From assembly GCA_020354625.1 (NCBI GenBank), contig CP070651.1:1912278-1948716 (forward strand): a stretch of DNA of 36,439 nt. The letters run 5' to 3'. Both the position numbers and the translations under genes were made by a program. This stretch comes from Trueperaceae bacterium (lineage in GTDB: Bacteria; Deinococcota; Deinococci; Deinococcales; Trueperaceae). This document shows, one piece after another, positions 7,527 to 16,317 of the stretch (position 1 is the stretch's first letter; each line of letters starts with the position of its first letter). Below the pieces are notes generated by a model. The model was not told the DNA's origin. It was given only the letters and a program-made list of their open reading frames with translations, and ran no database searches.

Positions 7527-7633
7527 GTGATGAGTGAGCAGTAATGCGTGATGAGAATTGCGAAGTGTATGGGTTCGGCCAAGCCGTTTGCCCGTCACCC
7601 ACGCATTACCCATCACTCATTACTCATCACCCA
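7527..7633. repeat. Dispersed heptamer-repeat element, copy with inverted ends
   Basis: Forward heptamers (gtgatgagtgagcagtaatgc, 7527 onward) and inverted heptamers (acgcattacccatcactcat, from 7600) flank a core of about 45 bp. The core end gccgtttgcccgtcacccacgc closely resembles the repeats at 13540 and 13620. The gap lies between two convergent genes, 7464-7680. Confidence 0.8.
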
Positions 7634-12747: not shown

Positions 12748-12777
12748 TTGACAGGGCCCGGGCCACATTCGTATACT
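12748..12777 (+). promoter_or_regulatory. Strong sigma-70-type promoter
   Basis: TTGACA (12748-12753) and TATACT (12772-12777) are separated by 18 bp. This is the closest match to the full bacterial consensus that I find in the window. Transcription would begin near 12784, inside the palindrome that follows. Confidence 0.75.
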
Positions 12778-12780
12778 TAG

Positions 12781-12805
12781 GTATACCTTAATTATTAAGG
12801 TATAC
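12781..12805 (+). promoter_or_regulatory. 25-bp perfect palindromic operator overlapping the transcription start
   Basis: Arms gtatacccttaat-like: precisely GTATACCTTAAT (12781-12792), a central T, and ATTAAGGTATAC (12794-12805). The hexamer GTATAC also occurs at 12771-12776, so it lies at 12771, 12781 and 12800, which is about one and two further helical turns apart. The position over the expected start point fits a repressor site. Confidence 0.7.
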
Positions 12806-12815
12806 TACTCACTCT

Positions 12816-12835
12816 GGTGCTGGCCTTAAAGCACC
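12816..12835 (+). promoter_or_regulatory. Small hairpin in the leader before the ribosome-binding site
   Basis: GGTGCT and AGCACC pair across an 8-base loop, and GGAGGAG (12840-12846) follows directly. A tiny frame ATGACGAGCCGATGA (12849-12863) starts five bases after GGAGG and its stop overlaps the ATG at 12860. Confidence 0.45.
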
Positions 12836-12859
12836 CTTTGGAGGAGCGATGACGAGCCG

Positions 12860-12919
12860 ATGATCGAGACCGTAACGACGTTTGAACCGAACCTCGAGAC
12901 CGAGACCAGCAGGAGGTGA
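12860..12919 (+). CDS. 19-codon leader frame
   Basis: A short frame encoding 19 residues (MIETVTTFEP then NLETETSRR). Its ATG overlaps the stop of the preceding four-codon frame (ATGA). Its last codons, AGG AGG, form with the TGA stop the sequence AGGAGGTGA, which is a full-length Shine-Dalgarno match. The next frame opens with GTGA on the same stop. This looks like a translational-coupling leader rather than a functional peptide. It could also be the start of a decayed small gene, because the same frame stays open for 29 codons after the TGA. Confidence 0.4.
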   Translation: MIETVTTFEPNLETETSRR

Positions 12920-13320
12920 CGCCCATCAGCTTTTCCAGATATGGATCCCAGACGACACGCCGGCGCTTGGCACGCCGTAGACCCCAAAGCGAACCCAGGG
13001 CGCTCGTAAACGAGCCCAGCTATCTCTTCAGACAACTCTTCAACACCTGGCATGTAGATGCGGCCGGTCCTTACGTAGACGAGTTGGTGGCCGAGCTTGC
13101 TGATTACGTGGCAAGGGCTTACGGGCCGCTCTGCCTAGGGTTGGTTCGCAAGGCGGCCGTGCCCCGGTACTACGGGCTGGTCTACCTGTTAGATGCCTTC
13201 GGCATGGTCCTTCGCAAGCGCTACCGGAAAGATGGGGAGAGCGTCTTGATCTTCGTCGAGGCCAAAAAGCGGGAAGCGGCTGCAATTTGGAGAGAAGGCG
13301 GGCTGGCTCGAGCAGCGTAG
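12916..13320 (+). CDS. Unrecognised 134-codon protein behind a regulated promoter
   Basis: I do not recognise this protein. Residues 1-35 are basic and of uncertain reality. From about residue 36 the sequence looks like a folded helical domain, with SYLFRQLFNTWHV, VDELVAELADYVARAYG, a GLVYLLDAFG stretch and an ESVLIFVEAKKREAAAIW end. There is no signal peptide or membrane helix. The GTG at 12916 shares its bases with AGGAGGTGA, so that sequence cannot serve it as a normal ribosome-binding site. Reinitiation after the 19-codon leader is possible, or a non-standard ATC start at 12925. The promoter and operator upstream imply that expression is tightly controlled, perhaps by its own product. Confidence 0.55.
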   Translation: MTPISFSRYGSQTTRRRLARRRPQSEPRALVNEPSYLFRQLFNTWHVDAAGPYVDELVAELADYVARAYGPLCLGLVRKAAVPRYYGLVYLLDAFGMVLRKRYRKDGESVLIFVEAKKREAAAIWREGGLARAA

Positions 13321-13322
13321 CC

Positions 13323-13664
13323 CTCGCAGGTAATGGGTAATGCGTAATGGGTAATGCGTGGGTCACTTGCGAACGGAATAGAGACACCAGATCGTACTGC
13401 CTTTGAAGCCGCAATAGTCAGAGCAGACGGGGGTAGATACGAACGTTCGCAACACCCATCACCCATCACGTAACACCCATCACCCATCACCTTGTGGGGG
13501 TAGAAGCTTCGAAGGATAGAGGGATAACCGAAGCGTTTGCTCGTGACCCACGCATCACCCATCACTCATTACCTTGTGGCGGTAGAACCTTCGAAGGATA
13601 GAGGGACAACCGAAGCGTTTGCTCGTGACCCACGCATCACCCATCACTCATTACTCATCACCTT
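13323..13664. repeat. Heptamer-repeat cluster with an 82-bp direct duplication
   Basis: Forward heptamers at 13326-13361 (ggtaatgggtaatgcgtaat) end in gcgtgggtc. A core of about 80 bp leads to aacgttcgcaac and inverted heptamers at 13450-13490. Two direct copies of an 82-bp unit follow, starting at 13491 and 13573, which differ at only three or four positions. Each has a core with cttcgaaggatagaggga and an end tcgtgacccacgcatcaccc. The gap upstream of ddrA (13321-13681) consists almost entirely of this material. Confidence 0.85.
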
Positions 13665-13681
13665 AATAGATAAGGGGAATC

Positions 13682-14383
13682 ATGAACACCAACAAATCAC
13701 CGTTTGAATCAGATCTGCAACCAGATTGGCCCGAACTTCACGAGGAACTCGCCCAACCCTTTCCGGCTCGCTCCGTCTCTTGGCGTGCAGGGGTGGTGTC
13801 GCGTGATAAGCGGCGCGCCCAAGCACTCCCCTTTGTCGATCCGCGCCTCTACGAGGACCGGTTGAACCGGGCGTGTCCGGGTGGTTGGAGTGTACATTTC
13901 AAGCCGTGGGGGGACACGCGCATCGTCTGTGAGTTGACCATTTACGGCGTTACTCGGGCCTCGACGGGTGAGTTCGATGCCGGCGACCGGATCGCCCAGG
14001 GCACCGCCGCCGAGGCGCAGGCCTTCAAGCGTGCCTGTAGCAAGTTCGGTCTCGGGCGTTACCTCTACGACATCCCCATCGTCTGGGTCGATTTTGATGA
14101 GGGCCGGGGCCGGTTACGTGAAACTCCGGAGTTGAGTGGGCGCTTCGCTCCGAGCGATATGGAGGCAGGTGCGGTGCCCGATGCGGCGATGACCCTCACG
14201 ACCGACCGGGCGGAGGCGATGCGCCGCGAGCTCGAGAAGCTCGGCCTCGCTCGCAGAGAACAAGCTGAGTTCGCCTCGGCGGTGCTGGGGCGGAGGGTTG
14301 GTAATTTTACCAACCTCACCGAAACCGAAGCGCTCGAGGTTTGGAACGTTGCTCGTAGCAGCAGCCACGATATTGCGGTGTGA
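13682..14383 (+). CDS. ddrA: DdrA, Rad52-like DNA end-protection protein
   Basis: A 233-residue member of the Rad52/DdrA family. The conserved core spans about residues 20-140: SVSWRAGVVSRDKRRA, a PFVDPRLYEDRLNRACPGGWSV-type segment read in parts, ELTIYGVTR, GTAAEAQAFKRACSKFG and LGRYLYDIP. This matches D. radiodurans DdrA (about 208 residues), which binds 3' ends of single-stranded DNA and protects them after damage. A variable acidic linker and a C-terminal region (about 165-233) follow. AAGGGG, four bases before the ATG, is a modest ribosome-binding site. I see no radiation/desiccation response palindrome upstream; the upstream DNA is repeat material. The stop codon overlaps the start of the next small gene. 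Confidence 0.9.
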   Translation: MNTNKSPFESDLQPDWPELHEELAQPFPARSVSWRAGVVSRDKRRAQALPFVDPRLYEDRLNRACPGGWSVHFKPWGDTRIVCELTIYGVTRASTGEFDAGDRIAQGTAAEAQAFKRACSKFGLGRYLYDIPIVWVDFDEGRGRLRETPELSGRFAPSDMEAGAVPDAAMTLTTDRAEAMRRELEKLGLARREQAEFASAVLGRRVGNFTNLTETEALEVWNVARSSSHDIAV

Positions 14384-14538
14384 GGTCTCGGCAAGCGATG
14401 CCGGTTGAGCAGGAGGTTTGTTACCGGTGTAGCGGTTGCAAGCAGTGTGTGGTCCTCTACGTTGTGGCGACGGTGGTCTGTAGCCGCTGCGGACGCCAGA
14501 TGCGGGTGGTTCGTGAGAACGAACGAACGGTCGCCTAA
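14380..14538 (+). CDS. Small cysteine-rich zinc-ribbon-like protein coupled to ddrA
   Basis: A 52-residue protein if it starts at the GTG that overlaps the ddrA stop (GTGA), or 46 residues from the ATG at 14398. From the ATG, cysteines fall at 8, 11, 14, 17, 28 and 31, as CYRCSGCKQC followed by CSRCG. The paired CxxC knuckles are typical of a zinc ribbon, with extra cysteines in the first knuckle. The C terminus is basic and then polar. The overlap predicts co-translation with ddrA, and a strong hairpin lies over its stop codon, so the two form a closed unit. A DNA-binding or DdrA-accessory role is inferred from context. I do not know a named homologue. Confidence 0.72.
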   Translation: MRSRQAMPVEQEVCYRCSGCKQCVVLYVVATVVCSRCGRQMRVVRENERTVA

Positions 14539-14555
14539 ACAGCGACCGTTCGTTC
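14521..14555 (+). terminator. Hairpin at the end of the ddrA unit
   Basis: Arms gaacgaacggtcgc (14521-14534) and gcgaccgttcgttc (14542-14555) are perfect 14-bp complements with a seven-base loop holding the zinc-ribbon stop codon. A T run (tttttt) comes about ten bases later, so termination is likely but the T run is not immediate. Confidence 0.65.
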
Positions 14556-14593
14556 ACTGGCGTTGAGATTTTTTGCGAACAGAAGAAGGGAAG

Positions 14594-14740
14594 GTGATGG
14601 GTGATGAGGAATGGGTGATGGGTGTTTCGAAGCGAAGGGGTGCAACTAAGAACCTCCAACCGCGAACATTACATATTTAGGTGCCTAAACCCTTTGCTGG
14701 CAACCTACTCATTACTCATTACGCATGACCCATTACCCGT
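14594..14740. repeat. Heptamer-repeat element between convergent genes
   Basis: Forward heptamers at 14594-14622 (ggtgatgggtgatgaggaat) and inverted ones at 14706-14738 (tactcattactcattacg) flank a core of about 85 bp. The core contains a 14-bp palindrome, TTTAGGTGCCTAAA (14676-14689), which loosely resembles DtxR/MntR-type sites but lies downstream of both neighbouring genes. Confidence 0.75.
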
Positions 14741-14752
14741 TGAAGCTCGGGC

Positions 14753-15556
14753 TTAGGCGGCCGCCTTCTCCATGAGCTGGTTGACGTTCATGCCGGTGAG
14801 GTAGGCCAAAAACGATGGCAGGATGGGGAGTACGCAAGGGGAGAGGAACGAGAGCGCGCCGGCGGCGAAGGCGATGCCGAGAGTCGGGGTGCTGGCGCCG
14901 TCCAAGACAGCGCCCTCGACGCTGCCGAGACTCGCCAGGTAGGGGGCGAAGGCGTTGACAGCGCCGGTGGCGAGCAGGAGCCCGACGGCGATCAAGAGGA
15001 CCGCACCGACCTTCTCGATGACGCCGGCGTAGCGCCGGAGCGCTTTCCAGGCGGGGAGGAGCTGCGCAAAGACCAGGAAGGGGACGGCGAAGCCGAGCGC
15101 GTAGACGCCTAAGAGCAGACCGCCCTGCGAAGCGCCCCCGGTGGTGGCTGCGATTCCGAGGATGCCGGCCAGGATCGGGCCGATGCAGGGTGTCCAACCG
15201 GCCGCGAAGGCGACGCCGACCAGCGCCGAGCCGGCGTAGCCGGTCGGCTTGTATTGCATGTGTACCCGCATGTCGCGCTGCAAAAACGGGAGCGGAATGA
15301 CCTTCAACATGAGGAGCCCCATGAGGACCAGGAACACGCCGGCGACGACCCGGATGATAGTGCCGTACTCGAAGAGCACGTTGCTGACCAGCCCGGCGCT
15401 GAAGCCGAGGGCGATAAAAACGGCGCTCAGGCCCAACACGAAGGCGAAGGTGTGCAGGGTGAGGTTCAAGCGTACGGACACGGCAGGTGCGTTGCTCCCG
15501 CCTTCTGTGTGGTTGACGGCTTCAGCGTGGTCTTCGGTGCGGGTGACGTCGCTCAT
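14753..15556 (-). CDS. ccdA: CcdA-type thiol electron transporter with circularly permuted helix order
   Basis: A 267-residue, six-helix membrane protein of the CcdA/DsbD family, which carries reducing equivalents across the membrane to extracytoplasmic thioredoxin-like proteins. Both redox-active cysteines are present: Cys124 in GWTPCIGP and Cys241 in LSFLSPCVLP. In ordinary CcdA the SPCVLP helix is the first helix. Here the N terminus is hydrophilic (about 30 residues) and goes straight into the usual second helix (LHTFAFVLGL), and the SPCVLP helix comes last (about 228-255). All helix orientations can be kept if the termini move to the other side. The ATG at 15556 overlaps the stop of the thioredoxin-like gene (ATGA), so the two are coupled. 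Confidence 0.9.
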   Translation of the reverse strand: MSDVTRTEDHAEAVNHTEGGSNAPAVSVRLNLTLHTFAFVLGLSAVFIALGFSAGLVSNVLFEYGTIIRVVAGVFLVLMGLLMLKVIPLPFLQRDMRVHMQYKPTGYAGSALVGVAFAAGWTPCIGPILAGILGIAATTGGASQGGLLLGVYALGFAVPFLVFAQLLPAWKALRRYAGVIEKVGAVLLIAVGLLLATGAVNAFAPYLASLGSVEGAVLDGASTPTLGIAFAAGALSFLSPCVLPILPSFLAYLTGMNVNQLMEKAAA

Positions 15557-16110
15557 CGGCTCCACTCTACCCCGATGCCGGCCAGGTGATCGGTGAGCTC
15601 GCCTGCGGTGAGGGGGCCGATCTTGACCGAGGCCACCACGCCTTCGGCGTCGATGAAGAAGGTCGTCGGCATGCCCCGCACACGGTAGACCTTGTTTAGG
15701 ACGTTGCGTGTGGTATCGAAGTCGATGTCGGCGAACTGTTGTTTCTGTTCGGTAGAAGCGTCGTAGACAGAGGTCAGGGTGGTGCCGACTTCCTGCTCGA
15801 GAAAGTCTCTCGCCATCTCGAAGGGCTCGGCGAGGTTGACCAGCAAGAAGGCGACCTCACCGCCCGCACTGCTGACCGCGTCGTGGGCTTGTTGGAACAG
15901 GGGGATCTCTTCGATGCAAAAGGGGCACCAGGTAGCCCAGGCGTTGAGGACCACCGGGCTGCCCTGAAAATCGGAAAGCTTGATGACCTGGCCGTTCTCG
16001 TCGACCAGGGTAAAGTCGGGCGCGGGCTTGCCGGGGCTTACAGCCGACGCCAGGGTGGTCATCAGCAAAATGAGTAAAAGTAGTACTGTTGGAAACACAC
16101 GTCGCTTCAT
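15553..16110 (-). CDS. TlpA/ResA-like secreted thioredoxin
   Basis: A 185-residue extracytoplasmic thiol-disulfide oxidoreductase. A signal peptide or membrane anchor covers about residues 1-24 (KRRVFPTVLLLLILLMTT). The mature part has the TlpA/AhpC-TSA-like entry PAPDFTLVDENG and the redox motif WCPFC (Cys62 and Cys65). A cis-Pro segment, VRGMPTTFFIDAEG, follows. The CcdA gene is directly downstream and overlapping, so this protein is the probable electron acceptor. The pair probably reduces apocytochrome c or CuA-site thiols, which suits the oxidase operon in this window. I chose the ATG at 16110, with AGGAG five bases upstream; a second ATG and a GTG lie just before it. Confidence 0.9.
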   Translation of the reverse strand: MKRRVFPTVLLLLILLMTTLASAVSPGKPAPDFTLVDENGQVIKLSDFQGSPVVLNAWATWCPFCIEEIPLFQQAHDAVSSAGGEVAFLLVNLAEPFEMARDFLEQEVGTTLTSVYDASTEQKQQFADIDFDTTRNVLNKVYRVRGMPTTFFIDAEGVVASVKIGPLTAGELTDHLAGIGVEWSR

Positions 16111-16201
16111 CATCACTCCTACCGAAAAAGGGCTTGGACGGTACTAGGGTTGGGGTGTACCTCCTGATAGGTGTGATGATAGCCAGACGAGAGGAACGTG
16201 A

Positions 16202-16237
16202 CCGTATAAGAGTTGACCTGGGTCAACTCTTATACGG
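16202..16237. promoter_or_regulatory. 36-bp perfect palindrome
   Basis: Seventeen-base arms, CCGTATAAGAGTTGACC and GGTCAACTCTTATACGG, surround a TG centre. No T tract follows on either strand. It lies about 90 bp upstream of the thioredoxin-like gene and directly borders the permease scrap at 16240. It may be an operator, or the remnant end of a mobile element. Confidence 0.8.
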
Positions 16238-16239
16238 GG

Positions 16240-16309
16240 TCTCCCGAGGGCTTGCCGGGAATCTGGGTTTTCTTTCAGGAGAGCCACCTCTGGGCTACCT
16301 TAGACCGGG
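16240..16309 (+). pseudogene. Fragment of an ABC permease gene
   Basis: About 70 bp are some 83% identical to 34234-34303 inside the intact TauC/SsuC-like permease gene. The translation SPEGLPGIWVFFQ, then ESHLWATL, matches SSEGLPGVWALFQ and ESHLWATL of that protein in register. Similarity stops just before the TGA at 16315-16317. It is a relic of a second permease gene, not a whole gene. Confidence 0.85.
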
Positions 16310-16317
16310 AGGGCTGA

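What the first reader, a model, noticed from the sequence alone, without database searches (positions are those of the whole stretch)
12748..13320. Consensus promoter, 25-bp operator and layered leader before an unknown gene
Seen: TTGACA-18-TATACT, a perfect palindrome over the expected start point with GTATAC repeated at 12771, 12781 and 12800, a small hairpin, GGAGG, a 4-codon frame, a 19-codon frame ending in AGGAGGTGA, and then a 134-codon frame opening with GTGA. No other gene in the window has such an elaborate 5' region. Inference: a switchable, possibly self-regulated gene with translational coupling.
Basis: partly seen in the sequence, partly recalled or inferred. Interest (0 to 1): 0.65.

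Follow-up and report, generated by a model that had tools for sequence, protein, structure and literature searches.

The report
SOS-controlled DNA-repair operon with LexA operator
The striking palindrome is almost certainly the docking site of the SOS repressor LexA, in a form not found described, and it switches on an operon for a DNA-annealing repair protein and an unknown partner after DNA damage; this matters because the radiation-resistant cousins (Deinococcus) run such genes with a different, SOS-independent switch.

Summary
The anatomy is real: TTGACA-18-TATACT (12748-12777), then a perfect 25-bp palindrome (12781-12805). The window lies in a Trueperaceae genome (Deinococcota). The palindrome's core, ACCTTAATNATTAAGGT, also stands before lexA, recA, uvrA, an ImuB-like polymerase gene and a glyoxalase-family gene in the same genome, and before lexA in at least 23 of 28 Trueperaceae genomes checked (1% of shuffles do as well). 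Operator and LexA recognition helix change together across the phylum. A matrix trained only on lexA promoters ranks this palindrome first in the window. So this is a LexA (SOS) operator of a kind I found no description of, not an autoregulator's site: only 4 of 111 Deinococcota genomes encode the 134-aa protein. That protein (X) is a new small family, always next to a Rad52/Erf-type annealing protein gene; in Truepera radiovictrix the order is lexA-X-rad52-like. Promoter and operator are conserved in all four; the 'layered leader' frames are not. Binding and induction are inferred, not shown. The wider point: Trueperaceae appear to run recA and an annealase by SOS, whereas Deinococcus uses DdrO/IrrE; this genome shows no IrrE-type protease and no credible RDR motif.

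The parts
12748..12777 (+). Sigma-70-type promoter TTGACA-18-TATACT
   Evidence: -35 and -10 conserved in G013, G017 and G001
12781..12805 (.). 25-bp perfect palindrome; 17-bp core ACCTTAATTATTAAGGT at 12785-12801 = inferred LexA operator (SOS box) over the expected start point
12816..12835 (+). Small leader hairpin; a hairpin lies at the same place in G017 and G001
12849..12863 (+). 4-codon frame after GGAGG; not conserved as a frame
12860..12919 (+). 19-codon frame whose stop overlaps the GTG start of the next; not conserved as a frame
12916..13320 (+). Gene X, 134 aa as read from GTG. Relatives start at a codon next to the one aligned with Val31 (GTA here), so the 30 N-terminal residues are an unconserved extension or a misplaced start
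   Evidence: no Pfam, PHROG, PADLOC, NCBIfam or PDB match; model core pLDDT about 90 with no fold match
13660..13676 (.). Second, degenerate operator ACCTTAATAGATAAGGG, 5 bp before the start of the Rad52-like gene
   Evidence: scores 21.7 bits, within the range of lexA sites (18.5-30.9), second in the window
13682..14383 (+). Rad52/Erf-family single-strand annealing protein, 233 aa (DdrA-like by family only)
   Evidence: PF04098, 7.4e-6, above cut-off; phrog_1097 Erf-like annealing protein, 2.4e-20
14398..14538 (+). Possible 46-aa CxxC zinc-ribbon-like protein, third frame of the apparent operon
   Evidence: a CxxC protein also lies just downstream in G017 and upstream in G007; no family match

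Best explanation
The palindrome is the LexA operator (SOS box) of the Trueperaceae. Under normal growth a LexA dimer sits over the start point of a near-consensus promoter and blocks it. When DNA damage makes RecA-ssDNA filaments, LexA cleaves itself and the promoter fires, producing protein X, a Rad52/Erf-type annealing protein and perhaps a small zinc-ribbon protein; a second weaker operator at 13660 may tune the annealase separately. Shown by computation: the operator's presence, conservation and regulon membership, and the gene order. Inferred: LexA binding, repression and induction. Guess: that X assists or restrains the annealase.
For: (1) Same 17-mer core before lexA (1 mismatch), recA (2), uvrA (2), an ImuB-like Y-family gene (0) and a glyoxalase-family gene with TTGACA-17-TATGAT (0) in the own genome; 16 sites against 4 for the reversed control at up to 3 mismatches. 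(2) Across 39 Trueperaceae, 87 sites against 13 for the control at up to 2 mismatches; neighbours include lexA, recA, ImuB-like and DnaE-type polymerase genes. (3) Before lexA with 4 or fewer mismatches in 23 of 28 genomes, against 1% of shuffles, close behind a TTGAC element. (4) Operator and LexA recognition helix change together: HYVSL[KR]QHL with ACCTTA..TAAGGT; TYVTLKQHL with GCCGYA..TTTACGGT; a second LexA with xYPTLREHL and CCCT..AGGG; another lineage with RPQTLRQHL and CCTGTTATATAACAGG. (5) A matrix from lexA promoters alone ranks 12785 first (30.9 bits) and 13660 second (21.7) in the 36-kb window. (6) In T. radiovictrix (G013) one operator-bearing promoter precedes lexA-X-rad52-like. 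(7) The own LexA has S24 peptidase and LexA DNA-binding domains.
Against: No binding, cleavage or induction data exist here. The own LexA scores below NCBIfam's cut-off for the lexA equivalog (90.7 against 110.95). Some operator hits have no obvious SOS gene (L069, L071, L072, L075). The own recA is masked in the held genome beyond its first residues, so its identity rests on 30 residues (7.6e-5) plus the full RecA with operator in G001. X's role has no direct evidence.
Confidence: 0.92

Rival explanations
1. The 134-aa protein binds the palindrome and represses its own gene.
For: Operator directly before the gene; small protein of unknown function.
Against: X occurs in 4 of 111 Deinococcota genomes while the operator stands before lexA, recA and polymerase genes in many genomes without X. 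The model of X showed no match to a DNA-binding fold. Site changes track LexA's recognition helix.
Confidence: 0.02
2. The site belongs to a DdrO/IrrE-type radiation-desiccation response, as in Deinococcus.
For: Same phylum; ddrA, recA and uvrA are DdrO targets in Deinococcus (PMC8533742).
Against: The motif differs from the RDRM (e.g. TTTTATGTCATTGACATAAT, PMC8533742); the RDRM gives one 3-mismatch match in the own genome; no Peptidase_M78/IrrE-type protease in the own genome, though the search finds one in the control Deinobacterium; the motif precedes lexA itself.
Confidence: 0.02
3. The palindrome and leader act as RNA (5' stabilising hairpin, or leader-peptide/translational coupling control).
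For: The transcript could fold the palindrome; leader folding z = -2.1; hairpin plus purine stretch at the same place in G017 and G001.
Against: At lexA promoters the same sequence lies within the promoter close to TTGACA, so is largely or wholly untranscribed; sequence, not just pairing, is conserved; tiny frames are not conserved. A minor additional leader role is not excluded.
Confidence: 0.04

Closest known systems
LexA operators / SOS regulon of other bacteria (e.g. CTGT-N8-ACAG in E. coli; 17 motifs counted in PMC8565304)
   Same: Palindrome over or near the core promoter of lexA, recA, uvrA and translesion polymerase genes; LexA with S24 peptidase domain in the genome
   Different: Sequence ACCTTAATNATTAAGGT is not among the motifs named in the passages read (PMC8565304, PMC7739468), and no paper found treats LexA sites in Trueperaceae; regulon includes an annealase operon and a glyoxalase-family gene
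DdrO/IrrE radiation-desiccation regulon of Deinococcus (RDRM)
   Same: 17-bp palindrome controlling recA, uvrA and a Rad52-family annealing protein (ddrA) in the same phylum
   Different: Other motif, other repressor family, other protease; no IrrE-type protease found in this genome
[quoted passage not shown]
   Same: lexA as first gene of a SOS-controlled operon
   Different: In T. radiovictrix lexA heads X and a Rad52-like gene, not a mutagenesis cassette
Phage Erf/Sak/Rad52-type recombination genes
   Same: The 233-aa protein matches phrog_1097 and PF04098; in G007 a similar gene sits in an ArdC-bearing element with a small protein faintly like X
   Different: In these four genomes the gene lies behind an SOS operator; X has no phage relative found

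Membership tests
LexA operator (SOS box) | Same site before lexA itself | tested here: met
   Own genome and at least 23 of 28 family genomes
LexA operator (SOS box) | Same site before recA and translesion polymerase genes | tested here: met
   Own recA and ImuB-like gene, G001 recA, G005 and G028 DnaE-type genes, G006 ImuB-like gene
LexA operator (SOS box) | Overlaps or abuts the core promoter | tested here: met
LexA operator (SOS box) | Genome encodes LexA (winged helix plus S24 peptidase) | tested here: met
   NCBIfam lexA hit 8.9e-26 but below its cut-off
LexA operator (SOS box) | Site and LexA recognition helix vary together | tested here: met
   (few independent changes)
LexA operator (SOS box) | LexA binds it and damage relieves repression | not testable with these tools
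   Needs gel shift and expression data
DdrO/IrrE RDR regulon | RDRM sequence | tested here: not met
DdrO/IrrE RDR regulon | IrrE-type protease in the genome | tested here: not met
   PF06114 absent from the own genome; control positive
Rad52/Erf annealing protein (13682-14383) | Family profile above curated cut-off | tested here: met
   PF04098 26.4 bits against 20.3; phrog_1097 2.4e-20
DdrA orthologue (13682-14383) | Closest to Deinococcus DdrA rather than to phage Erf/Sak | not tested
   Not compared with DdrA; own genome has a further Rad52-like paralogue
Any described protein family (gene X) | Profile or fold match | tested here: not met

The most novel reading that the evidence does not exclude
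Trueperaceae retain the LexA-run DNA-damage response that preceded the DdrO/IrrE takeover in Deinococcus, with an annealase gene as a shared target of both, and protein X is a new, SOS-induced cofactor or regulator of a Rad52-type annealing protein.
Probability: 0.3. Interest if true: 0.75.

Novelty: new variant of a known kind. Interest (0 to 1): 0.55.

Why it matters
Truepera radiovictrix is extremely radiation-resistant like Deinococcus (60% survival at 5 kGy, PMC3072082), yet its family seems to control recA and a Rad52-type annealing gene by classical SOS. That gives a ready comparison for asking whether the SOS-independent DdrO/IrrE switch is needed for extreme resistance, and how one damage response replaced another within a phylum. 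It also adds a LexA motif, with related motifs and matching recognition helices across the phylum, and a new damage-inducible protein family beside an annealase.

Tried and rejected
Single-sequence search of genome contigs for X found nothing; the alignment found two Trueperaceae MAGs, the same loci as G017 and G001. The G005 match to X is spurious: it lies in an oxidoreductase-like frame. Viral contigs and plasmids gave no relative of X. Rfam gave nothing in the window. Fold searches gave no match below E 0.02. The faint likeness of a 112-aa G007 protein to X (hhalign 32% probability) is kept only as a lead. Translational coupling was considered and left as unproven. A first scan of lexA upstream regions ignored strand and was redone.

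Full report
A perfect 25-bp palindrome is beyond what shuffles of the window give (longest 23 bp in 100 shuffles), and the promoter is the only sigma-70-like site nearby.

The window sits at 1.91-1.95 Mb of a 4.29-Mb genome whose family is Trueperaceae: two of its family genomes are Trueperaceae MAGs by title, and G013 is taken to be Truepera radiovictrix RQ-24 from its exact length of 3,260,398 bp (PMC3072082).

Gene X (12916-13320) has relatives in three other genomes of two further genera (G013 49%, G017 and G001 about 40% identity) and nowhere else in 111 Deinococcota genomes (the G005 match is spurious). In all four it stands next before a Rad52/Erf-type gene; in T. radiovictrix the order is lexA-X-rad52-like. 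Relatives begin at a methionine that aligns at Val31, so the extra 30 N-terminal residues here are not conserved.

The operator. Upstream of X in G017 and G001, and upstream of lexA-X in G013, the same promoter and operator recur: TTGACA-17-TATACT, then TACCTTAA with its inverted half. G001 has a second copy further up. In the own genome the core recurs before lexA, recA, uvrA, an ImuB-like gene and a glyoxalase-family gene. The glyoxalase case recurs in another genus, G002. The reversed control pattern gives 4 against 16, and across 39 family genomes 13 against 87.

Independent test. I took 28 lexA upstream regions from the family: 23 hold the core with 4 or fewer mismatches, against 58 of 5600 shuffles. 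A matrix from lexA promoters alone, without this operon, puts 12785 first in the window at 30.9 bits and 13660 second at 21.7; the training sites score 18.5-30.9; the third, at 14666, scores 17.5 and the fourth 9.9. The degenerate site at 13660 is 5 bp before the Rad52-like start.

Who binds. Genomes with ACCTTA..TAAGGT sites have LexA with HYVSL[KR]QHL in the recognition helix. Genus g17 has TYVTLKQHL and GCCGYA..TTTACGGT; G021 has HYTTLKQHL and ACCCTAATATTTAGGGT; second LexA copies with xYPTLREHL have CCCT..AGGG sites; genus g20 of another family has RPQTLRQHL and CCTGTTATATAACAGG. G010 is an exception in part: it has a TYMTLQQHL helix with an ACCTTA..TAAGGC site. X is absent from nearly all these genomes, so X is not the binder.

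Against a Deinococcus-type switch: the RDRM gives one 3-mismatch match and no Peptidase_M78 protein is found in the own genome. Other Trueperaceae do have M78 proteins (9 of 39), at least one of them an ArdC-type element protein, so absence of IrrE is claimed for the own genome only. In Deinococcus, recA and ddrA are under DdrO (PMC8533742) and D. [quoted passage not shown]

The leader. Hairpin and purine stretch keep their place in G017 and G001, but lengths and frames of the tiny ORFs do not, and a comparable chain arises in 3% of shuffles. The near-perfect AGGAGGTGA is too close to the GTG to serve it in the usual way; start-site choice is open (inference).

The Rad52-like gene exists twice at 100% protein identity: window 13277-16317 is repeated at 3.26 Mb at 99.7%. 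The held part of the second copy has the 3' end of X and the 13660 site but not the main promoter (a masked stretch adjoins the junction).

Verdict: a LexA-controlled annealase operon with a previously undescribed partner protein and, as far as the papers searched show, an undescribed LexA motif. Mechanism class known; variant and protein new. Binding and induction remain to be shown.

Noticed in passing
window 13277-16317 and G000:C1 about 3.2625-3.2656 Mb (L055): 3-kb segmental duplication, 99.7% identical, carrying the Rad52-like gene, a thioredoxin-like gene and a DsbD-like gene; the second copy lacks the main SOS promoter.
   Followed up: partly
window 13330-13680, also near 7600, 14600 and 22500: Dispersed short repeats of the GTAATGGGTAATGCG / CATCACCCATCAC kind fill the gap between X and the Rad52-like gene; in relatives the two genes nearly abut.
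   Followed up: no
L134-L138 (G005, G004, G015, G019, G023): A second LexA paralogue with recognition helix xYPTLREHL and its own operator CCCT..AGGG directly behind a TTGAC-17-TATCCT-like promoter.
   Followed up: partly
L010/L056 (own genome) and L077 (G002): A glyoxalase-family gene carries a perfect LexA operator; in the own genome it lies behind TTGACA-17-TATGAT. An unexpected SOS target in two genera.
   Followed up: partly
L055 5690-5760, minus strand: TTGACA, palindrome AACTGTTAACAATTAACAGTT and TATACT close together beside the duplication junction and an oxidoreductase gene: another operator-like promoter of different sequence.
   Followed up: no
L058 (G007): ArdC-bearing element with a 112-aa protein faintly like X, a CxxC protein and a Rad52-like gene in a row: a possible mobile origin of the module.
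   Followed up: partly
window 5210 and 32720: Two perfect 27-bp G+C-rich palindromes; role not examined.
   Followed up: no
window 14666: Third-best match to the LexA matrix (17.5 bits), not before an obvious gene.
   Followed up: no
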